From positions 536,001 to 600,000 of the forward strand of contig CAJNDS010001757.1 of assembly GCA_905221605.1 (NCBI GenBank): 64,000 nucleotides of DNA, read 5' to 3'. Below, in pieces: positions 1-12,600 of the stretch. Position 1 is the first letter of the stretch; each line of letters begins with the position of its first letter. A model generated the notes under the pieces. It did no database searches, was not told where the DNA came from, and saw only the letters and a list, made by a program, of their open reading frames with translations. The position numbers and the translations under genes were made by a program. The stretch is from Symbiodinium natans (taxonomy: Eukaryota > Sar > Dinophyceae > Suessiales > Symbiodiniaceae).

Positions 1-2770
1 TCAAAAACAGACGTGCAATTCTACGACGGAAAGCCATGCGGCGGGAAGTTTAGGGTTTAGGAAGTTTGGGGTGTTTAGGGTGTTTAGGGTTTAGGAAGTT
101 TAGGGTTTAGGTGTGTAATTCTGAACTTCTGAGTTCTGACTCGTGGACATTGAGAGGCCTGTTTCCCGGCTACCGGCCCGCCTTGCTGGCCCGGGGGGAG
201 CTATCTCTGAAGGCCCCGGAGCGGGCATGAGTGGTTCTGGGCTGTAGGGCTGTAGGGTTTAGGGTTTAGGGTTGTTGGTGAGTGTCTTGTAAGGTCTCTT
301 ATCGATATTGGTAGTTGTGTATATAGGGGGGTGTTCTCTCGGAGAAAAGAGGACCCTACCTCTGGGCTGCTTGTTTGGGGTTTGGGGTCGGGGCGTTGCG
401 TTTGGGATTCGAGGATTGGAAGCCCACTCTCACAAACCCGAAACTTTAAACCCTAATACTAAGCCCTAAGCCCTAAGCCCGAAGCCCTAAGCCCTAAGCC
501 CTAAAGCCCTAAGCCCTCAGCCCTAAGCCCTCAGCCCCCTAAGCCCTATAAGCCCTATAAGCCCTATAAGCCCTATAAGCCCTATAAGCCCTATAAGCCC
601 TATAAGCCCTATAAGCCCCACAAGCCCTATAGGCCCCCCCCTAAAAGTCCTAAAAGCTCTAAGCGCCCTAAGCCCTAAGCCCTACGCCCTAAGCCCCAAG
701 CCCTAAGCCCCAAAAGCCCCAAGCCCCAAGCCCCAAGCCCTAACCAAGCCCTAAGCCCTAAGCCCTAAGCCCCAAGCCCTGGGCCCCAAGCCCGAAGCCC
801 CAAGCCCTAAGCCCCAAGCCCCAAGCCCTAAGCCCTAAGCGCCCTAAGCCCTAAGCCCCGGACCTGGATCCTGCAAGCCACAAACATCGAGCCCGCTCCT
901 TGTACTTGAAGGTTCATGCGTAGTGATGAGTAGGGTGATAGGTACCTTAGGGTTTAGGGTTTAGGGTTTAGGGTTTTGGGATCTAAGGTTGTAGCTTGGG
1001 ATGTTCCCCTCACGCCACCACTGGATACCAAGAACGGCCGGGCTGTACAAAGGCTGCTGGCAGCTTGGAGATGTGAATCGCTAGTGCTCCTTGAGGCTCA
1101 ACACCATTCTGGGGACGGTCTTCGACTTTATGGGGTTTAGGGTTTAGGGTTTCCCCCTGGAGCTGGCTGCAAGCTGCGTGCAGACGCTTTCGCCTTGGTG
1201 CCAGGGCTGGCGACCACCCTTCGCAAAGAAGCCCTTCTGTCGTGTCTTAGACGCAAGGTCACAGCGGATGACCTTGACAATCACCGCCTCGACTGCCTGG
1301 CGCATTGATGCCGCCTGGCGAGGACAACTCCCGGCTATGGACGACGAGGAGGATCGTTTTGTTCGCGCTGTCCACGTGAAGCGCCCTTACGAGAACAGTC
1401 CTCAAGAGGGATTGTTATAGGGCGTATTATAATCCCTATTCAGGAGTGTCAGTATAAGGGGGAGCATCCCAAGTTAAAGCATAATTATAGTATAACTTGG
1501 TAGGCCCTTGGATATTTCATATTTTGCCCTCTTGGGTTTAAGAGCACCGTCTTGAGGAACATTCCATCCAAAAGAAGTACCTGAATGAACGTTATAATAT
1601 AGGTTACCTTACTTTTACCCTATTTATATCCATTCATTATTATTTATGAGTCTTTAAGTGTGTCTCGTCCTGAGCTTCCGTCAGGTCGCCAGCGTATAGT
1701 CGATTGTAGTCCCTGGCCCTTGTGTTTAGACCCCAAACCCTGAAACCCAAACCCTAAACTTCTAACCACACCGCCAACCCTGAACCCGACACAGGAAGCC
1801 CTAAACCTTAAGCCTTAAGCCCCAAGCCCAGACGACCTAAACGCTAACCCTAAAACCCCATACCCCTAAACCCTAAACCCAGGAAGCCCTAAACCTGCAC
1901 CCTAAAACCAGGGGAATCCGCTCTCCTGGGAAGCCCTGAACCCTATAAGCCTAAGCCCTAAACCCTAAACTCCACACCCGAAACCCTAAACCCTAAACCT
2001 ATATGCCCCAAAACCCTAAACCCCAAGCCCTAATCCCGAAACCCGAAACCTTAAACCCTAAACCCTAAACCCTAAACCCTAAACCCTAAACCCTAAACCC
2101 TAAACCCTAAACCCTAAACCCTAAACCCTAAACCCTAGAAAGCCCAGGTCCAGGACTTCGAGCGCGCCCGGGCGGACTTCCGACAGGTCCTCCAGGATGA
2201 GCCGGGGCCCCTTTTTTTTGGGGTGGTTTGGGGTTTAGGGTTTAGGGTTTAGGGTTTAGGGTTTAGGGTTTAGGGTTTCGGGGCTTAGGGTTTAGGGGTT
2301 TAGGGTTTAATTAGTGGTGTTTAGGGTTCAGAATTTCAGGGTTCAGGGTTTGGGGTTGCTTACGGTTGAGGGTTCAGGGTTTAGGGATCACTTTTGTTTC
2401 TGCAAAAGTGAAGGGTTTGCAGGAGCTGCCTATGATGAGGGTTGAGGGTTCATTCGAGAGGGGAGGGGTTTGAGGCCCAAGTGTTTGGCTTTCAAAGGCG
2501 GGGTTAGTAGTTAAGAGTGCCGCTGCAGCCCTAAGCCCTAAACCCTAAACCCTGAACCCTAAACCCCAATGGACGCTAAGTTGAAGCCCTGCCGATTTAC
2601 TTGAAGGTTCATGTGTTCTCAGTAGGGTTAGAAGGAAAGGGAGCCTATTTCACAGCATTAAAGTCGGGTCGGACGTAAGGAAACCCATATGGGTTTGGGT
2701 TTTGGGTTTGGGTTTAGGTTTTCGGGTTTCGGGTTTCGGGTTCAAGGTTTGGGGTTTGAGGTTTAGGGCT
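1..2770. repeat. Degenerate telomere-like repeat region
   Basis: Mostly variants of CCCTAAA/TTTAGGG. Positions 422-870 are CCCTAAG/CCCCAAG variants, including a 9-bp AAGCCCTAT run at about 540-620. A near-perfect CCCTAAA array lies at about 2056-2135, followed by a TTTAGGG array at 2228-2300, so polarity flips within 200 bases. Between the arrays are unique stretches, half-palindromes at about 992-1012 and 1430-1478, and a broken coding-like fragment at 1158-1420. No intact gene was recognised. Confidence 0.8.
1158..1420 (+). pseudogene. Broken coding-like fragment between half-palindromes
   Basis: Two frames look like protein in succession. One, from about 1170 to 1310, reads a Leu/Ala/Arg-rich helix (contains LRKEALLSCLRRK) and hits a stop. 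The next frame, to 1420, continues with an acidic/basic stretch (contains MDDEEDRFVRAVHVKRPY). This fits an exon or gene fragment broken by a one-base frameshift. No family was recognised. It is flanked by separated halves of a palindromic element (about 992-1012 and 1430-1478), so it may be captured cargo. Confidence 0.3.
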
Positions 2771-2833
2771 TAGTCAGCAGTCCCCTGTTCTATAGTACGA
2801 TGCACACTTCCCGGCATTCAGCATTTGGTTTGA
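2771..2833 (+). repeat. A1, left split direct repeat
   Basis: The 63 bases starting TAGTCAGCAGTCCCC recur exactly at 10267-10329. This is the left terminus of the element; the gag-like ORF opens just after it. Confidence 0.9.
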
Positions 2834-2852
2834 AGGTGGCCCCTTAGTTGAA

Positions 2853-4169
2853 GTGAACTTAGGGGCCGAACTTTCTTCGGGGCTGTCACCTCCTGCACTT
2901 CGTGCGGGAAGTGGACATAAGTCCTTGAAGTTTGTGAGGCAGTGGTCAGGAGCCATGGCGGGAACGCCTGGCCTGCCACGGTGGCGAAAGACTGGCCGTA
3001 CTGCCAGCCCCAGTCACCTGACTGGGGTCGAGGAAGATGTGTGGATCGAGGCGGCCGCCTACGACAACCGAGGCCACCGGCAAGGTCAGCTTGCGATCTA
3101 TCTGGCCGAGCCTGGAGACAGAATTGGGGCTGAAGAAGGGGCTGGATTCCTTGGGAACGTGATTGCGGTGCAGGACGGTTACTACGCTTGGTGGGTGGAG
3201 AGCACCTATGGTGCCTACGTGGTAGACCGCACCATCCCCTTTCACTTCTGCATCCACCCGGTGAACGACTGTGATGTGGAGACTGTGTACCGGAACCCCA
3301 TCCATGTGGACGTCTTCCGGATCATCCCAAAGGAGTCCCTCAACAGGATCAACTGGCTGACCGACAATGACAAGGCCACCATAGCAGCACACCCGAGCTT
3401 GGCCGAACCTGCGGCGCGTGAGGGGAACAGTTCGCTGGACCCCTTACGCAACGTGGGGGTGGCCGGCGGAGGTGGTGTTGGCGGGGGCCCCGTGGAAACT
3501 GGTATGGCGGGAATTGGTGGCTTGGCAGCAGCCTTGGGTACAGGCCTGGACGTGGCAGAGCCAAAGCCAGACGAAGCCACACAGAACCTGTATGAACTGG
3601 AAAAGCCCACGAAGAGCAGTGGAAGTGACCTCCTGGAGGAGATCCGTGGGCGTGAGGCGGCAGGTGCCAAGAGATCTGCCCTCGAGCTGGCCGGCGTGAA
3701 GGAAAAGAAGAAAAAGAAGAGTAGGAAGGACAAGAAGCGCAGGGACGAAAGCAGTGGCTCGTGTTCCTCTTCCTCTTCGGCGTCGTCTTTTCACTTGGCC
3801 GCCCTTCCGAAAGGCGTGGAGAAACTCAGGAGGCTGCACCAGCGGCGTCCGGGGCAGCTAGCAGCTCTGACGCTGCGGCGGTGTCAGGAGCTCCTCGCCA
3901 TGGCGAACGGAGGGGAAACGGCAGATATGAGCGCCAAGATGCCACCCGTCGCTCGAGGGTACCTTCGACAGATCTACTTGCAGGCGAACCCGCCGGGACA
4001 GATCGGGGCCAGGAACCACAAGGAACTGGAAACACTGGCGACCGTGATCGACCTCATCGCGAAGAACGATCCCCTGCGCGCCCTGGACATCTTAGTGCAG
4101 CGGCTCAAAGCGATAGAGCTGAGCGTGTCGCAAGGCAACTGGACCCAGGCAGAGCAATTGGAACTCTAA
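2853..4169 (+). CDS. Gag-like ORF1 of the YR retrotransposon
   Basis: Structural ORF of up to 438 residues. The better start is probably Met35 at 2955 (context CCATGG), giving 404 residues; the first ATG-like start is weaker. The N-terminal third is a compact domain rich in aromatic residues (QDGYYAWWVESTYGAYVVD, then PFHFCIHPVNDCDVE). A Gly-rich linker follows at about residues 195-225, then a Lys-rich stretch (KEKKKKKSRKDKKRR) and a poly-Ser run. The C-terminal third (about 305-438) is helical: LRRLHQRRPGQLAALTLRR, later LQRLKAIELSVSQGNW. I recall this helical module from dinoflagellate retroelement gag proteins, but that is from memory, not a search. It ends at a TAA at 4167-4169. The likely continuation is the basic tail in the next frame, so this stop may be a frameshift product. 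Confidence 0.7.
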   Translation: MNLGAELSSGLSPPALRAGSGHKSLKFVRQWSGAMAGTPGLPRWRKTGRTASPSHLTGVEEDVWIEAAAYDNRGHRQGQLAIYLAEPGDRIGAEEGAGFLGNVIAVQDGYYAWWVESTYGAYVVDRTIPFHFCIHPVNDCDVETVYRNPIHVDVFRIIPKESLNRINWLTDNDKATIAAHPSLAEPAAREGNSSLDPLRNVGVAGGGGVGGGPVETGMAGIGGLAAALGTGLDVAEPKPDEATQNLYELEKPTKSSGSDLLEEIRGREAAGAKRSALELAGVKEKKKKKSRKDKKRRDESSGSCSSSSSASSFHLAALPKGVEKLRRLHQRRPGQLAALTLRRCQELLAMANGGETADMSAKMPPVARGYLRQIYLQANPPGQIGARNHKELETLATVIDLIAKNDPLRALDILVQRLKAIELSVSQGNWTQAEQLEL

Positions 4170-4433
4170 TGTGTCGGAGTCGTCGGCCATGTTCAGGCAA
4201 GAGCTGAAAGCCGCCCAACAAGAGGTGAGATCAGAGTGGTCTCTGCAAAGAGGGCCGCGGCGCCAGCCCAGGTGGGGGCAGGACTGGTGGTACAGGGCTC
4301 CAGACAACGTACCCGTAGCCGAGAAGGAGGGCGAGGCCTGCGACAAGGCGCCAGAGAACAAGCCAACGAGACCGAAGGGAGGCAAGGGCGGCAAGGGCAA
4401 AGGCAAGAAGGGGAAGCCGCGCTGGAAGTGACT
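4168..4433 (+). pseudogene. Out-of-frame basic C-terminal tail of gag
   Basis: Frame +1 relative to ORF1 is open from the ORF1 stop to a TGA at about 4432. It encodes a helical segment (FRQELKAAQQEVRSEW) and ends in a Gly/Lys tail (KGGKGGKGKGKKGKPRWK), which suits nucleic-acid binding. It has no convincing ATG of its own at the junction, so it most likely belongs to the same protein as 2955-4169 after a one-base shift near 4165. It could also be expressed by frameshifting. Confidence 0.5.
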
Positions 4434-5490
4434 CCAAGTTTTGGGGGTTCTGGAGCACCGGGGGACTCACCTTTCGGGGAGGGTCCCTTGGGTATCTGGG
4501 CCCCCAAGCTTTTGGAGATCCTTTCCGAGCCAAGCTTCCAGGACACGCCCTCCATTGCCTGCCAGGTGAAAGGCCTCCTCAAGGACCACAACTTGGCCAC
4601 TATCGTCTCGACAGTGCTGTCCGCCCTGGGGAACGATGACACCCGCGAGCACGTCTCCTTCACGGTCATGGACACCCTCGTGGAAAACATGTGGGCTCCC
4701 CCCAATATTGTGGCGGAGCTGCTTCGAAGCATGTTCTCTGACCTGCTGGTGGACGAAGGCCCAGAACTGTCCAGCCACTTCCGAGAGGTCTTTGACATTC
4801 CCAGCACGACGAAAGTGCCAGCCATTAACTTGGTTGTGCGCGGGCCCGAAGCGCTCGAGATCTACCGTGGCATCTTGGTCATGCCAATGTCAGACCAGTG
4901 GACGGGAGACGACGGAGGTGTCTATGTGGGCCGAGGTAGACCCGGGACTACAAGATCGGTGCTCTTCGAGGGCTATGCCGACATGCTGCCCCGACCTTTG
5001 GTTCTCTCGATGCTCAATGGCCGGCCCCTCTACGTCTTTGATGACGAAGTGGACGCTGCCAGGCTGATTATCGACAAGTACCAGGTGCAGCCTGCGCCCA
5101 ACTGCTGGACTTCGGCTTCTTTGAAAAGCTGGCTGGTCTTCTGGCTTTCGGGGAGGACAGCGGCTCCGGCTTCTTTGGTGGGTCTGGTGCTGAAGGTGGC
5201 GGTCACCTTTGGGCCGGGCTCCGGGTGCGGCAAAACCTCGCCAAGCAGCTGCTTGCTGCCACACCACGTGAAATCCACGAGCGCGACCTGAAGGTAAAGC
5301 CAGACATCCTCGCCGACTGCTTCGGCCTCGGCAGTAACTTCTGCCCAAAGATCCGAATCCATGCAGCCACTGTGCCAGGCTGACAGCATTCGCTCGACCA
5401 ATTTTGCCTCAGCTTTGCTGGCCTCCGGCAACGCCATGGGGAGGAGCTCGCAGGGCGAAGGCTTGAAGTGCTCTCTAGCGCACACGGGCA
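4434..5490 (+). pseudogene. Linker protein region between gag and RT, frame-disrupted
   Basis: The same frame as ORF1 is open from 4170 to 5291. From about 4440 it reads like a globular protein (LLEILSEPSFQDTPS, then ALEIYRGILVMPMSDQW, then GRPLYVFDDEVDAARLI). Near 5100 the protein-like frame appears to shift (to LLDFGFFEKLAGLLAFGED, stop at 5381). Another shift leads to the frame open at 5361-5576, and a third leads into the RT frame near 5500. I do not recognise a domain. Position between gag and RT suggests a protease or structural role, but no aspartic protease motif is visible. The antisense ORF over 5030-5695 is treated as a shadow. Confidence 0.45.
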
Positions 5491-7446
5491 ATGTCCTCAA
5501 GAAGATGCCCAAGGACGGCCCTCCAGGAGGCCACAGCTCAGCGTTTCCGCAAGTACGCCAGACTCTTTGTCCATGATGACGAGGGTGGTCCTGCTGTAGT
5601 TGAACTTGGGTCCTGGGAATCTGTGAGGCAGTCGCTTGGCGACACCTACACCGGTCGCGAAGTCCAAAGGGCTTACAAGCTGACATGGCGAGCAATCCAA
5701 CCCCATGTCCCAGGACCAGGAGAAGCTGGACGTATTAATTTAGCGGACAAGGTGTCGCCTGAGCTTCGCGCCTTTGTGGAGGACCCGGACTTGTTGAGAA
5801 TCCCGGACATTGAGCTGGGAGACGTTCCTGAGTCCGCGGCGGTTCTTGTGGAAAGCCAAGAGGACTACGAGGAGATAGTCTCCAACCTGGTTGTTGCCGG
5901 CATGATGGAGCGGGAGATCCCTGAGGAGACGGTCGAGGTCCGCGGCAAGAAGATCACGAACGGCATGTTTGGGGTGCACAAGGCGTGGGTCCAAGAGCCA
6001 GATGGAACCTGGACTCGAAGCTTGCGGCTGATCATCAACCTCATTCCAACAAACCGGCTGCAGTCCAGACCGCCAATCCAGCCTTCGACGCAGATGGGCT
6101 ACGCTCCCCTTTGGGGGCAGATGGCACTCAATGAGGATGAGATCATCCTGGCATATGCGGAGGATATCCGGCATTGCTTTCACATCTTTGCACCCTCACC
6201 ACGGTGGCGAGGCTACTTTGTGATCGGCCGCTCTGTCCAAGGCCGCTGCTTTCAAGATGGCATCGGTGCCCGCGGACGCCCGCGGGTCCGCACGGCCCCG
6301 ATGGGATGGTGCAACATCGTCGATTTCGTGCAGTCCGCCCTGGAGAATGCCGGCACCCTCGCGGGAGTTCCTGCTGAAAGAGTAGTACGGATGGGCGACC
6401 CGTTGCCGCTCATGCCAGTCACGGGGACCCGTGACTACTACAGCTTCTACGTCGACAACTTCGACAGCTTCAAGGTGATGGCCGCTACGGAGCAAGGCCT
6501 CTACGAAGGGAAGCCTTCAGACACCCAGCTTGCCCTCCGCGAAGTCTTCCAGTGTTGGGGCGTTGGCCGTGATGAGAAGAAAGCCGCGGAGGGGACGCTG
6601 AAGTGGTCCTCACTTGGTGCAGAGCAACTGGGAGACCTGGGCCTCGTTGGCTCCTCGCGGAAGCTGCGCCGGGCTGTGCTGGGCGCCACTGTCCGGGTCC
6701 TTGAGTGCTCCCCGGCGGTGCCGCGTGGATCGCATGAGCTCTTGACCATCGTGGGCAAAGCAATGCGTTCAGTTCAGTTCTGCCGCCCTCTTGCCTGTAT
6801 GTTTGATGAGCTCTACGCCTGCTTGTCACACGAGGACAAGAAGATCAGCATCACAGCAAAGGCGGAGACAGAGTTGTATTGCATCCTCATGAGCCTCCCG
6901 ATGCACTACATGGAACAGCGGATGCAGATCTGCCCCACTGTTTATGCCACAGATGCCTCTCTTGAAGGGGGGGGTGCTTGTGCCAGTGTTGGGCTGTCTG
7001 CGCGTGGGCGTGCCAAGTGCCACCTGCTGGGCTCTGATGACGACATGGGAGGGGGCTGTGATGCAGTCTTGGTGATCGAGGCCTTTGGTGGAATCGGCGG
7101 CTTGCGGAAGGCTCTCGAACTGATTGGGCTTCAACCTCAAGGCCTGATCCTGATCGAGTCAGACCCGCTGTGCCAGAAGCTTGCCAGACGGCATTGCGGA
7201 TATGTCCAGGTTGTGGACGACATCAAGAAGGTGGATGCCGCAATGGTCCGCGATTGGCGACGGCAGTTTCCTCGTGCCAAGAAAGTGATCCTCGGAGGTG
7301 GATGGCCCTGTGTGCACCATTCGCGCCTCAATGCAAACCGAGAAGGTGCGGAAGCCGAACTTCTCTCTTGCTGGACGACCTCATCCGCACGCAAGATCTT
7401 CTTGAAAGGTGCAGCCAGCCGCTGCACTTGCCCCCCTGGCACGTGA
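5491..7446 (+). CDS. Reverse transcriptase, RNase H N-half and DNMT N-terminal motifs
   Basis: 651-residue ORF. RT motifs: Arg-rich entry (SLRLIINLIPTNRLQSRPP, about 177-195), motif A with Asp225 (AEDIRHCFHIF), motif B (RTAPMGW, about 267-273), and motif C as YVDN (320-323) in place of YxDD. The first acidic residue of RNase H is Asp488 in YATDASLEGGGACASVG. Only about 30 residues later a C5-cytosine methyltransferase starts: motif I AFGGIGGLRKALELIG (531-546), motif II LIESDP (554-559), and motif IV GGGWPC with catalytic Cys607 (codon 7309-7311). The frame goes wrong near 7345, so residues after about 618 are not the real protein. The continuation is in another frame (7347-8000). The start codon is uncertain because the protein probably continues from upstream. 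Confidence 0.8.
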   Translation: MSSRRCPRTALQEATAQRFRKYARLFVHDDEGGPAVVELGSWESVRQSLGDTYTGREVQRAYKLTWRAIQPHVPGPGEAGRINLADKVSPELRAFVEDPDLLRIPDIELGDVPESAAVLVESQEDYEEIVSNLVVAGMMEREIPEETVEVRGKKITNGMFGVHKAWVQEPDGTWTRSLRLIINLIPTNRLQSRPPIQPSTQMGYAPLWGQMALNEDEIILAYAEDIRHCFHIFAPSPRWRGYFVIGRSVQGRCFQDGIGARGRPRVRTAPMGWCNIVDFVQSALENAGTLAGVPAERVVRMGDPLPLMPVTGTRDYYSFYVDNFDSFKVMAATEQGLYEGKPSDTQLALREVFQCWGVGRDEKKAAEGTLKWSSLGAEQLGDLGLVGSSRKLRRAVLGATVRVLECSPAVPRGSHELLTIVGKAMRSVQFCRPLACMFDELYACLSHEDKKISITAKAETELYCILMSLPMHYMEQRMQICPTVYATDASLEGGGACASVGLSARGRAKCHLLGSDDDMGGGCDAVLVIEAFGGIGGLRKALELIGLQPQGLILIESDPLCQKLARRHCGYVQVVDDIKKVDAAMVRDWRRQFPRAKKVILGGGWPCVHHSRLNANREGAEAELLSCWTTSSARKIFLKGAASRCTCPPGT

Positions 7447-8000
7447 TCCGCCTCTTCGAGAATGTGGTCATGGATGGTAATGACCTCGACATCCAGTCTG
7501 CTAAGATCGGGTGGCGACCCATCTTCTGCGACAGTGTGCAGGCCCTGCGATGCCGAAGGCCGCGGTTGTGGTGGATCCAAGGAGTGGATGTCTTGCAAGG
7601 TGGTGACCTCAAGATTGTTGAGAGCAGCAGGGTGGCCAACCAGCACCGAGACGTCCGTGCTCTTAACCTCCGCCACGCTGTGATCGACACCGAAAGGCCC
7701 CCAATGGATTGGTTCCTACGACCCGGGTGTTACAAGACCGAAGAGCCGGAGGAGCCCTTCCTGACCTTTGCCCGGCCTGTGCCAAAGAAGCAAGCTCCCT
7801 CTGAGCCGGCAGGCATCGACAACTGTGATGCCAAAACACTGGGGCGTTGGAAGGGGGACTCCTGGCGCCTGGCGCCCTACCAGTACGCTCCCAAGAACTT
7901 GGTCACAAGCCCTCACGGGCAACGTCGGCTCACCTCAGATGAGCAGCTCCGCCTCCTCGGCTTCAACAGACCACCTGGACTACAAACAGAAGGTCAGTGA
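7347..8000 (+). pseudogene. DNMT central part (motifs VI-IX), shifted frame
   Basis: Continuation of the methyltransferase in the next frame. Motif VI is ENVVMD (about 7458-7475, the conserved ENV) and motif VIII is CRRPRLWW (about 7550-7573). A target-recognition-like region follows (MDWFLRPGCYKTEE). A motif IX-type segment RRLTSDEQLRLLGF lies at about 7923-7966. The frame then fails at a TGA (7998-8000), and motif X is found in the following frame. Together with the Cys-containing motif IV upstream this is a complete C5-MTase motif set, broken by two compensating indels near 7345 and 7970. Confidence 0.8.
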
Positions 8001-8754
8001 GGACAAGAAACAACAGTTCATCGGCAACACGTGGCCGGTAGTCGTGGCGGCTCGCCTCCTGCTGGGGCTGGTCATGACCGAGGAGCAAGCCGGTGTGCGT
8101 GACCTCACCAAGGAGCTGTGGGATGCCTGGAAAGCCCTGGAAGATCGCGCCCAGCAGGTCAAGAGAGGGTCTTGGAGTGAAAGGTTCGGTCCGAGTTCGG
8201 GGGAGGGGGCTGCCGTCCTTCCCTTCCGTCCGGGGGGGGTGGACACTGGCTCTGTTCCTCGGCTCATGATCGACCCGGACCTCAAGCTCACTGATGAGCA
8301 GTTCTTGGCCCGGATGGTGGGCCGCAATGTTTCACATCGGGGCACGGATGTCCGCCTTGACTTTGGCATCCCCTTCCAGGCCTCGGACTTTGGGAGGCGC
8401 GCGGTCGACCCCACACTGTGGACGTGGAAAGTCCTGATGAGCTACCGTTGGAAACGGACGGGGCATATCACACAGTTGGAGGCCGTTGCTGTCCTTGACC
8501 TCCTCAAGCGCCTGAGCCGTGCTGCAGGTTCAGGTAACGAAAAGTTCCTGCTGATGGTCGACAACCAGGCTGTGGTTGGGATCATCACGAAGGGCCGGAC
8601 CTCAGCCCACATGCTTCAGAGCACCTTGCGGCGTCTCAACTCGCTCCTGCTGGCCTCCAACAACAGGCTCCTCGTTGTCTACGTGCGGTCCGAGTACAAC
8701 CCCGGAGACGGACCGTCACGTTGGGTAGCAAGAAGGGCATCGCAGGATGCCTAG
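7980..8754 (+). CDS. DNMT motif X and RNase H C-half of pol
   Basis: The frame is open from 7768 but becomes protein-like from about 7980. It starts with methyltransferase motif X (QQFIGNTWPVVVAARLLLG, about 8011-8070), matching the GN..P pattern. A linker of about 110 residues follows. RNase H then resumes: the conserved Glu in GHITQLEAVAVLDLLKRL, the second Asp in LLMVDNQAVVGI, and the last Asp in YNPGDGPSRW. The missing first Asp is in the RT ORF at 6950-6960, upstream of the methyltransferase. The stop at 8752-8754 overlaps the recombinase start by 8 bases. Confidence 0.8.
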
Positions 8755-9709
8755 GAAAACTGTGCTGAGCAAGAGGACCAAGCAGGAGAGAAAAGATGAA
8801 CGCAAGGTGCTAGGAACTTTGAGGTCGCAGATTGTGTCACCTAAAACTGAATCTCGTTACCTTGAGCATGTTTCACGTTTTCTGAGTTTTCTGAAGCAGC
8901 AGGGAAAGTCTTACCCTACCACTTTTCTTGCTTTGGACTTTGAGCTGAGCGGTTTCATCGAGCATCTTTGGGAAGATGGGGACCCACGATCTTGGGCAGG
9001 GGACGCCCTGAGTGGTCTTGGCCACTTTATCCCTCCTGTTAAACCGCACTTGGTGGGCAGTTGGCGATTGCATGCGGCGTGGGGTAGAGCTGAACTACCT
9101 GCGCGAGCTCCTCCTTTCACACCAGTTCTGGTTTACGCCCTGGCCCAGGCTGCGTATGAACAAGGTTGGGGGGACACTGCCACCTTGCTTCTTCTTGGTT
9201 TTCACACGTTTGCTCGGTCGGGTGAGCTCTTTTCAGCACGGTGTGGGGACTTTGTGCTGGGTCGCGGCCGTGGAACATGGTCGCTTCCGTTGACCAAATC
9301 CGGGCAGCGAGCTGGCGCTTCCGAATCCCTAGTCATCTCAGACACGTTTGTGGGCACTGCTGTTGCAAACTTCATTCGGAACAGGAGCAAGGGGGACCTT
9401 CTTTCAAACTGTTCTCCCGGGGTGCAACGCCGTCGTCTTGCCCAACTTTTACAACGGCTGGGTCTGCAAGCGCCATATCGTTGGTACTCTCTTCGCCGAG
9501 GGGGAGCCACTCATGAGTATCGTGTTACGAATAATTTGCCCGCGGTGTGCTTGAAAGGACGTTGGACTGCAGTTCGCACTGCACGAATCTATCTTTGTGA
9601 TGGGATGGCCCAACTCTCGCAGTTGCAGTTGCCAGCGCCGCAACTTCGCAAGTTGCAAGCTCTTGCCCGCAAAGCGCGGCCTGGGTATGATGCAATCAGT
9701 TCAGATTGA
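8747..9709 (+). CDS. Tyrosine recombinase (YR) of the retrotransposon
   Basis: Intact 320-residue ORF. It would integrate the circular DNA intermediate at the TAG crossover. Catalytic signature: Arg157 (HTFARSGELF), Lys184 (LTKSGQR), the box YSLRRGGATH (247-256, Arg250/251), Trp273 (GRW) and nucleophile Tyr282 (TARIYL). The N-terminal 120 residues are a SAM-like core-binding region (SRYLEHVSRFLSFLKQQG). Length is typical for a Ngaro/DIRS recombinase. The ATG overlaps the pol stop, suggesting coupled expression from one transcript. No frameshift is visible, in contrast to gag/pol. Confidence 0.88.
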   Translation: MPRKTVLSKRTKQERKDERKVLGTLRSQIVSPKTESRYLEHVSRFLSFLKQQGKSYPTTFLALDFELSGFIEHLWEDGDPRSWAGDALSGLGHFIPPVKPHLVGSWRLHAAWGRAELPARAPPFTPVLVYALAQAAYEQGWGDTATLLLLGFHTFARSGELFSARCGDFVLGRGRGTWSLPLTKSGQRAGASESLVISDTFVGTAVANFIRNRSKGDLLSNCSPGVQRRRLAQLLQRLGLQAPYRWYSLRRGGATHEYRVTNNLPAVCLKGRWTAVRTARIYLCDGMAQLSQLQLPAPQLRKLQALARKARPGYDAISSD

Positions 9710-10008
9710 GAAGAAATTGTAGGGGCACGAGGGCCGCTGAGGATGCAAGTGCCAGTAGCGGCAACGCTCTGGCAGCTAATGGTAGGCAGTTGGCTCTCGT
9801 TTCGGTTGGGGATGCAAGTGCCAGTAGCGGCAACGCTCGGGCAGCTGCAGTAGGTGGTAGGCATTCCTTTCCGTGCGTGGGTACGAAGAGTGCACATGGC
9901 ACTTAGACCCGCCCACATCCTCCCTTCTTTGTTGTATTCCGTTCTCACCTTCCTGCTTGAGGGCTACGGGAAGCCGCACTATGTGCCAAGTGGGTGAGGT
10001 GGAGTGCA
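9710..10008 (+). other. Element 3' noncoding region with direct repeats
   Basis: Follows the recombinase stop. It holds two imperfect direct repeats at about 9740-9790 and 9808-9857, sharing the core GATGCAAGTGCCAGTAGCGG. No ORF of interest is present. Confidence 0.6.
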
Positions 10009-10269
10009 GCTTGGCTGTTTAAAAGTTTGAGCACGGGCTCCATGTGGGAGGGCCAGCCAGGACGGAGCATCGGCGGGACGTTATTGGTCGCTTGGGCCGC
10101 GGGGTTGTCCAGCTGGGGGGCCGGGTGGCTTCTTTTGTGCTCCCCTGGCTGGCAGTTTCCGGGGCTCTTGCGCCGTTTTCTGTCTCACGTTGTGTTTTGG
10201 GTGAACCACTTCGCTCTCTAGCGCAGCTAATGCCGAAAACAAGTGACGGAAGTGTTGTGTGAGTACTAG
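10009..10269 (+). repeat. B1 split direct repeat
   Basis: A 261-base copy matching 10376-10636 with a single A/G difference near 10083. It ends GAGTACTAG, where TAG is shared with the start of A2. Confidence 0.9.
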
Positions 10270-10329
10270 TCAGCAGTCCCCTGTTCTATAGTACGATGCA
10301 CACTTCCCGGCATTCAGCATTTGGTTTGA
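10267..10329 (+). repeat. A2 split direct repeat, next to the internal junction
   Basis: Exact copy of A1 (2771-2833), placed directly after B1 and sharing TAG. The B1-A2 joint recreates the circle junction needed for YR retrotransposon replication. Confidence 0.9.
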
Positions 10330-10375
10330 CCCGCCGTCCACCCCCATTCGCCACCCGTGGGGAAGCTGCACTCTG

Positions 10376-10636
10376 GCTTGGCTGTTTAAAAGTTTGAGCA
10401 CGGGCTCCATGTGGGAGGGCCAGCCAGGACGGAGCATCGGCGGGACGTTGTTGGTCGCTTGGGCCGCGGGGTTGTCCAGCTGGGGGGCCGGGTGGCTTCT
10501 TTTGTGCTCCCCTGGCTGGCAGTTTCCGGGGCTCTTGCGCCGTTTTCTGTCTCACGTTGTGTTTTGGGTGAACCACTTCGCTCTCTAGCGCAGCTAATGC
10601 CGAAAACAAGTGACGGAAGTGTTGTGTGAGTACTAG
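10376..10636 (+). repeat. B2, right split direct repeat and terminus
   Basis: Matches B1 at 260 of 261 bases. It ends TACTAG, and the flank then reads GATTTTTCACAG. Short ORFs inside B1/B2 recur because of the duplication and are not taken as genes. Confidence 0.9.
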
Positions 10637-12600
10637 GATTTTTCACAGTAAAAAAGGCACTTATGACTTCTAACTATCCATGAACATTCAAGCAGGGGTT
10701 GTTCAGGCTGGTCTTATGGGCACTTTTAGGGGGTGGCACTGGGGGTGACTCAGGAACCCTATAGCCCTAAACTCTACAGCCTAAAACGTAATTAACCCCT
10801 AACCCCTGACCCCTGACCCCTGACCCCTGACCCCTAAACCCTAAACCCTAAACCCTAAACCCTAAACCCTAAACCCTAAACCCTAAACCCTAAACCCTAA
10901 ACCCTAAAAACCCTAAACCCCCTAAACCCTAAACCCCCTAAACCCCCTAAACCCCCTAAACCCTAAACCCTAAACCCTAAACCCTCAACCCCAAACCCCC
11001 TCCACCCAGGCCTGTCCACCTAATAGCCCGTCGCGGCCTGGCCGATGCGCCAGCGCCCCTGATTGCCAGAGAGTCATAAGTGGGGGGTATATGTACCTTG
11101 ACTAGGGTTTTAGGGTTTAGGGTTTAGGACCCTAAACTCTAAACCCAAGACCCTAGACGCTAAAGTTTCACTGTTGGGGGGGGGCGAAAATGTCCAATTT
11201 GGAGCGAGTCCAGCTTAACAAGAAGCCCTAAACCCTAAACCCTAAATCCTAACATAGGTTTCCTTACTTCCGACCCGAGTTATATTTATCCATGAACCTG
11301 CAAGTACGGGTTTCGGGGTTTAAGGGTTCAGGGTTTAGGGTTTAGGGCTGGGGTTTAGGGGGCTAGGGCTTCGGGTTCAGGGCCTCTGGAGCAGTCAAAA
11401 TAAAGGGGGGGAAGGGTTTAGGGTTTAGGGTTTGGGGTCTGGTGTTTAGGGTTTAGGGTTTGGGGTGGAGGGTTTAGGGTTTAGGGAGCCTGACTTACGG
11501 GGCATGTTTACCCTTTCTTTCTTGAAGTACAGGGTTGCTCTAGGACTCTAAGTAGAACACAAAACGTTTTAACCCAGAGGCTCTCAAAGCCAAGCCATGC
11601 AATACGTGGCCGCGGTCAAAGCGCCCTACAGCCGACACCAAACACAGTGAGCCTAGGATCTAGAGTTCGGGGTAGTTTCATGCGCCCTTAATATGGTCTC
11701 CAGCCTCCTTCAAAGGGTTCTGAATCTGGGCCTGAAGTCTGGGCCCTTAATTTGAATAGCATAGATAAGGGGTATACAAAGGGGTACCCTTTTTCAGGCC
11801 CATACCTAAGGGACCATGAAACTACGCGTAACTACGTAATTACCCTTAGAGTATAGGCTTTCGTTGCTTGAAGGGCTCCTTTTCAGGGGGGGTCGCCTGC
11901 GTAATCCGAGCTTTTTGATGACCATAGGGTTTCGGGGTTTAGGGTTTAGGGTTTAGGGTTTGGGGGTTCTAGACCCTGCCGTATAAGGGCCCGAGCCGCC
12001 TCCTAAACGTTTCGGGTCCCCTGCGTCCACGCGGCAACTGATTTAGCCTAAGCCCTGAAACCCTAAACCCTAAACCCTAAACCCTGAACCCTAAACCCTA
12101 AACCCTAAACCCTTAACCCTGAACCCTAAACCCTACACCCCAAGCCCCAAGCCCCAAATTCTACGGGTTAACACGGCTTAACTTTCGAGTTCTAAGTCCC
12201 AAACCCTAAACCCAAAACCCGAAAACCCTAGAACCCTACATAAAACTCAAAACCCTGAAACCCTAAAACCCTCAAACCCTAAAACCCTGAAACCCTAAAA
12301 CCCCGAAACCCTGAAACCCTAGAACCTTGAAACCCTGAAGCCCTGAAACCCTAAACCCTAAACCCTAAACCCTAAACCCTAAACCCTAAACCCTAAACCC
12401 TAAACCCTAAACCCTAAACCCTAAACCCTAAACCCTAAACCCTAAACCCTAAACCCTAAACAACCCTAAACCGCTAAACCTAACATTGAGGCTGAGAGGC
12501 CTTGGCAACTTCCACGAGGCTGGGCCTGCCAGCCCCCGACTTTTTCTAGGGGTTGAGGGTTGAGGGTTTAGGGTTTGTAGGGTTCGTAGGGTTCGTACTG
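10637..12600. repeat. Telomere-like arrays and a MITE-like palindrome
   Basis: C-rich arrays at 10790-11000 and 12050-12480 (the last with about 16 near-perfect CCCTAAA units at 12345-12463), and G-rich arrays at about 11310-11490. A family-3 palindromic element lies at about 11688-11855. The sequence between them shows no supported gene. Confidence 0.75.
11688..11855. mobile_element. MITE-like element, family 3
   Basis: Shares the core CTTCAAAGGGTTCTGAA...GGGCCC...GGGGTATACAAAGGG with copies at 35255-35407, about 30203-30357, about 52690-52800 and about 63440-63560. The ends are roughly inverted (ATGGTCTCC versus GGGACCAT). No coding capacity. Confidence 0.55.

What the first reader, a model, noticed from the sequence alone, without database searches (positions are those of the whole stretch)
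6950..8735. C5-cytosine DNA methyltransferase nested inside the RNase H domain of a retrotransposon
The first RNase H Asp (YATDASLEGGGACAS, Asp488 of the RT ORF) lies about 40 residues before DNMT motif I. The remaining RNase H residues (Glu in GHITQLEA, Asp in MVDNQA, Asp in NPGDGPSRW) lie after DNMT motif X (FIGNTWP). Between them is a full C5-MTase motif order: I, II, IV with Cys607, VI (ENV), VIII and X. So the enzyme sits as an insertion in one fold rather than appended to it. Methyltransferases in dinoflagellate retrotransposons have been reported before; the nesting within RNase H of a YR element is the part that looks new to me.
Basis: partly seen in the sequence, partly recalled or inferred. 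Interest (0 to 1): 0.9.

Follow-up and report, generated by a model that had tools for sequence, protein, structure and literature searches.

The report
DNA methyltransferase nested inside RNase H
In a family of algal jumping genes, a DNA-methylating enzyme sits inside the folded RNA-cutting part of the copying protein instead of beside it, and many relatives share this arrangement.

Summary
The window carries a 7.87-kb split-repeat (A-coding-B-A-B) retrotransposon, 2771-10636. This copy's pol frame is broken; a 98-99.6% identical copy in the same genome reads through as one 1355-aa ORF.

Dnmt3 in dinoflagellate DIRS elements is published (PMC5890265). I found no text describing the nesting, but its figures could not be seen. 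New here: nesting runs through a whole clade; the insert persists where its catalytic motifs are lost while RNase H stays intact; two relatives carry a different insert in the same loop. One or several insertions: not settled. A coupled function is inferred, not shown.

The parts
2771..10636 (+). whole retrotransposon copy (broken)
   Evidence: repeats and exact limits of 98.3-99.6% identity to L010
2771..2833 (+). repeat A, first copy
   Evidence: 100% identical to 10267-10329
2796..4169 (+). open frame at the place of gag; identity not shown
   Evidence: only a sub-threshold Pfam match
5479..7446 (+). frame with RT, RNase H first half and start of the DNMT
   Evidence: no Pfam RVT match, RT placed by alignment and recalled YVDN motif
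6892..6987 (+). RNase H first half (strands 1-2, Asp1 at 6952-6954)
   Evidence: profile 6-37, E 5.7e-4
7060..8080 (+). DNMT3-like cytosine methyltransferase, over three frames in this copy
   Evidence: Pfam PF00145 sub-threshold E 0.0044; alignment to open relatives; fold of relative P0015
8347..8751 (+). RNase H second half (strand 3 to last helix; Glu, Asp, Asp)
   Evidence: profile 70-176, E 3.2e-32 over 8419-8739; fold
8729..9709 (+). tyrosine recombinase-like ORF
   Evidence: weak: NCBIfam XerA E 0.0061 and Pfam Phage_int_SAM_4 E 0.13, both sub-threshold; no PDB sequence match; motif recalled
9990..10269 (+). repeat B, first copy
   Evidence: 97% to second copy
10267..10329 (+). repeat A, second copy
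10357..10636 (+). repeat B, second copy

Best explanation
The window holds a broken copy of a dinoflagellate-type DIRS/PAT-like retrotransposon whose pol protein carries a DNMT3-type cytosine methyltransferase inside its RNase H domain, in the loop between beta strands 2 and 3. RNase H folds from two halves whose catalytic residues lie about 500 residues apart; the methyltransferase is a self-contained lobe on that loop. Proposed working (inferred): RT copies RNA to cDNA, the two-part RNase H removes the RNA, and the tethered methyltransferase marks CpGs of the new DNA before the recombinase integrates it. Because one fold encloses the other, imprecise deletion of the lobe would wreck RNase H, so the lobe can persist after it has lost catalysis. 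Shown: sequence order, two-half profile match, predicted fold, conservation. Inferred: substrate, timing, benefit (cDNA methylation step about 0.45) and a single old insertion.
Against: The window copy is broken. Foldseek alone is weak for the C half (best E 0.072). The first-half match in the window is modest (E 5.7e-4). The PC or EN motif is missing in 14 of 31 inserts, so methylation is not universal. The careful tree forces two changes of state, not one. No biochemical test.
Confidence: 0.8

Rival explanations
1. Linear polyprotein: RT, then DNMT, then a complete RNase H after the DNMT; the upstream TDAS motif is a chance or remnant match.
For: The first-half match is short and weak in the window (E 5.7e-4); listing domains by Pfam would suggest a linear order.
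Against: The C-terminal part starts at profile position 38-70 in all 31 two-half proteins and lacks the first Asp; the missing part is found upstream in order, with the Asp kept in 31 of 31. The C-half fold begins at residue 28 of RNase H1.
Confidence: 0.06
2. The loop is a hot spot: methyltransferase domains entered it several times, not once.
For: P0052 and P0093 hold a different insert in the same place; P0092 without an insert lies within the clade beside P0052 (99/94), and starred branches force two changes, 0 of 200 bootstrap trees needing one; the loop varies in relatives without the DNMT (Asp1 to KGR 73-168 aa in 42 pieces); nine of 20 insert-tree splits differ from the RT tree, and its root is unresolved.
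Against: DNMT-type inserts share order and similar spacing; 11 of 20 splits are shared with the RT tree; one nested clade is not rejected under LG+G4 (p 0.08). One gain plus one loss also gives two changes.
Confidence: 0.3
3. The nested DNMT is a passenger: RNase H is disabled or supplied in trans, and the insert has no function.
For: Eight of 31 inserts lack the PC motif and six more lack EN; inserts evolve somewhat faster in three pairs with a dead insert.
Against: RNase H residues are conserved in 31 of 31; 17 of 31 inserts keep both PC and EN; isolated SymbioDIRS DNMT domains are active in yeast (PMC5890265).
Confidence: 0.12

Closest known systems
SymbioDIRS-Dnmt3 (de Mendoza et al. 2018, PMC5890265; outline, sections 6, 10, 19 and found passages seen)
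   Same: DIRS-like A-coding-B-A-B repeats, DNMT3-type domain in the pol ORF with RT, separate recombinase ORF, dinoflagellate hosts
   Different: its text as seen gives two domain orders but no nesting in RNase H; figures and supplements not seen; sequences not compared directly
DIRS1-like elements with Dam-like MT (PMC3266345, found passages seen)
   Same: tyrosine-recombinase retrotransposon with RT, RNase H and a methyltransferase in pol
   Different: there the order is RT-RH-MT, methyltransferase after RNase H, adenine type (PMC5890265), inverted repeats; here cytosine type, nested, split direct repeats
PAT-like elements (PMC3266345, found passages seen)
   Same: split direct repeats
   Different: a nested DNMT is not mentioned in the passages seen
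DNMT3A/DNMT3B catalytic domains
   Different: hosted inside RNase H; about 20% identity; PC or EN motif missing in 14 of 31 relatives

Membership tests
SymbioDIRS-Dnmt3 retrotransposons | A-coding-B-A-B repeats | tested here: met
SymbioDIRS-Dnmt3 retrotransposons | DNMT3-type domain in one ORF with RT | tested here: met
   in L010 and open relatives; in the window copy the frame is broken
SymbioDIRS-Dnmt3 retrotransposons | separate tyrosine recombinase ORF | tested here: inconclusive
   ORF 8729-9709 with only sub-threshold matches
SymbioDIRS-Dnmt3 retrotransposons | sequence kinship to the published copies | not tested
   published sequences not at hand; P0023 is named Skav201090, which I read as S. 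kawagutii from recall
C5 DNA methyltransferase (DNMT3) | DNMT3 fold | tested here: met
C5 DNA methyltransferase (DNMT3) | PC and EN catalytic motifs | tested here: met
   both in the window and in 17 of 31 relatives; not in the other 14
C5 DNA methyltransferase (DNMT3) | methylation activity | not testable with these tools
   no assay; related published domains active in yeast
RNase H | D-E-D-D residues | tested here: met
   window and 31 of 31 for the first three, 30 of 31 for the last
RNase H | RNase H fold | tested here: met
DIRS1-like with Dam-like MT | methyltransferase after RNase H | tested here: not met
   the insert lies between the RNase H halves

The most novel reading that the evidence does not exclude
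The strand 2-3 loop of RNase H in this retroelement lineage is a docking site where DNA-modifying domains became locked in: a DNMT3 insertion became a lasting lobe of the copying enzyme, methylates cDNA as RNase H uncovers it, and is kept even when dead because it can no longer be removed without harm; another methyltransferase-like domain fills the same site in sister elements.
Probability: 0.3. Interest if true: 0.8.

Novelty: new variant of a known kind. Interest (0 to 1): 0.62.

Why it matters
Domain capture by retroelements is usually pictured as joining beads on a string. Here one enzyme is nested inside another and stays so through a diverse clade. It gives a testable reason for retrotransposon DNMTs, physical coupling of cDNA methylation to RNA removal, and a natural case of entrenchment, in which a dead enzyme is kept because it is built into a needed fold. 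It also explains why routine annotation misses it: the Pfam RNase H model matched none of 17 relatives scanned.

Tried and rejected
Linear order with a complete RNase H after the DNMT: see rivals. Frame artefact or chimera: rejected by L010 and the two-half proteins. Viral-contig scans with A3 and P0052 gave no relative. PDB sequence search of the recombinase ORF: no match. The VIA rows shown for the P0015 model are methyltransferases spanning 468-811, so RNase H was not tested; the C-half model was made for that. dN/dS: synonymous sites saturated in most comparisons. AU test under the PMSF model did not finish; LG+G4 gave p 0.08. Literature: searches show no paper stating the nesting, judged from titles and abstract starts; one listed 20 of 43 and 76 listed 15 of 26. 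PMC5890265: outline, sections 6, 10, 19 and found passages; PMC6338049, PMC9998398 and PMC3266345: found passages. Supplements and figures not seen.

Full report
What is there. The window (G000:C1721:536001-600000 of a 759-Mb genome) holds a retrotransposon at 2771-10636. Its ends are set by repeats A (63 nt, 100%) and B (280 nt, 97%) in the order A-coding-B-A-B and by the limits of identity to a second copy, L010 on contig C59: four main aligned pieces of 98.3, 99.6, 98.3 (inverted) and 99.2%. L010 shows the same repeats. At the inner junction the B and A copies overlap by three bases, which would fit a recombinase crossover without target duplication (inference).

The pol of the window copy is spread over three + frames, 5479-7446, 7062-8000 and 7765-8754. 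L010 has one open frame of 1355 aa through the same region.

The nesting. The Pfam RNase H model does not match the window pieces or any of 17 relatives scanned at E<=1; the window C part has only a weak match to PF00336, viral polymerase C-terminal domain (E 0.088). I therefore built a profile from uninterrupted RNase H pieces of 42 relatives without the insert: 38 of the 47 proteins listed (P0089 and P0095-P0098 left out by hand; P0055, P0068, P0081 and P0093 gave no usable piece) and four ORFs of the window's own genome, L029-L032. Against 115 targets it matches 31 in two halves in order, with 347-480 residues between. Of 34 targets with a single match, 27 have only the first part, six only the second, and one (P0095) an uninterrupted RNase H; the other 50 have none. 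Most one-part targets are incomplete proteins or broken frames, by their lengths. At the columns of Asp1, Glu and Asp2 the 31 have D, E and D in every case; the last Asp is D in 30, P0013 ending before it. Of 3100 shuffles the best score was 6.0 bits; the weakest first half among the 31 scores 9.6 bits (P0042). The 31 are not all independent: L009 is the place of P0024, and L013/L014 and L018/L019 look like near copies.

In the window the halves are ORF 5479 aa 472-503 (profile 6-37) and ORF 7765 aa 219-325 (profile 70-176); no other of 145 ORFs of the element matches at E<=1.

Spread and age. A tree of RT plus RNase H columns (54 of 56 rows, insert left out; P0087 and P0093 dropped as too short) puts all 24 nested rows in a 25-row clade with support 100/98; the odd row is P0092, uninterrupted, sister to P0052 (99/94). 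P0095, uninterrupted on a long branch, lies next to it. The tree needs two changes; starred branches force two, and 0 of 200 bootstrap trees need one. That is one gain and one loss, or two gains. The AU test with LG+G4 does not reject one nested clade (p 0.08), which does not show one. The insert tree (23 nested DNMT-type rows and two other DNMTs) shares 11 of 20 splits with the RT tree; nine differ, some with support above 90, and its root is unresolved. I read this as mostly joint inheritance, with an old insertion likely but not settled.

State of the methyltransferase. By a simple motif scan of the 31, PC and EN are both present in 17, PC without EN in six, and PC absent in eight. The eight are P0013 and P0043 (EN kept), P0042, P0052, P0093, L011, L027 and L028. 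RNase H residues are intact in all eight but for the cut end of P0013. P0052 and P0093 carry a zinc-finger-like stretch followed by APEC/APDC, FSRA and EHPY.SW motifs; I call this methyltransferase-like from recalled patterns only. Pfam gives nothing for P0052 and NCBIfam nothing for either.

Selection. In six pairs whose inserts keep PC, insert dN over RT dN is 0.92-1.33. In four pairs with an insert lacking PC it is 1.55, 1.40, 1.29 and, against the trend, 0.91 (L010/L011). Synonymous sites are mostly saturated and the pairs overlap, so this is only a hint.

Other architectures. L034, in the same genome, has a DNMT upstream of an RT (by recalled motifs) in one 1015-aa ORF; the RNase H profile does not match that locus above chance (best E 0.38). 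This may be the second SymbioDIRS type of PMC5890265. PF00145 has 117 matches in the genome; I read three of those loci (L033-L035), so more arrangements may exist.

Known and new. PMC5890265 reports SymbioDIRS-Dnmt3: DIRS-like repeats, DNMT in pol with RT, two domain orders, independent acquisition, and CG methylation in yeast by isolated domains of both. The element here most likely belongs to that group; the published sequences were not compared. I did not find, in the parts of that text seen or in the listings, a statement that the DNMT interrupts RNase H.

How it may work. RT makes cDNA, RNase H built from both halves removes RNA, the tethered DNMT methylates CpGs of the new DNA. PMC5890265 already proposed that cDNA is methylated upon retrotranscription; the nesting adds a physical coupling and a reason for keeping dead inserts. 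Neither is shown here.

Noticed in passing
window 4845-5521: Compared with L010, about 300 bp (5223-5521) are inverted and about 120 bp (4846-4966) have no counterpart at that place, so the window copy is also rearranged upstream of RT.
   Followed up: partly
P0052 and P0093 (database proteins): A different insert, zinc-finger-like plus methyltransferase-like motifs (recalled), in the same RNase H loop.
   Followed up: partly
L034:1957-5001: DNMT upstream of an RT in one ORF of the same genome, a different architecture.
   Followed up: partly
P0095, C-terminal part: Uninterrupted RNase H, and after it a DLYTGQGGVARAM stretch that resembles a methyltransferase motif I (recalled).
   Followed up: no
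window 418-2400 and 10765-11990: Arrays of CCCTAAA/TTTAGGG-type telomere-like repeats on both sides of the element.
   Followed up: no
window 9738-9846: Two 40-nt direct repeats, starts 69 nt apart, between the recombinase ORF and repeat B, also in L010.
   Followed up: no
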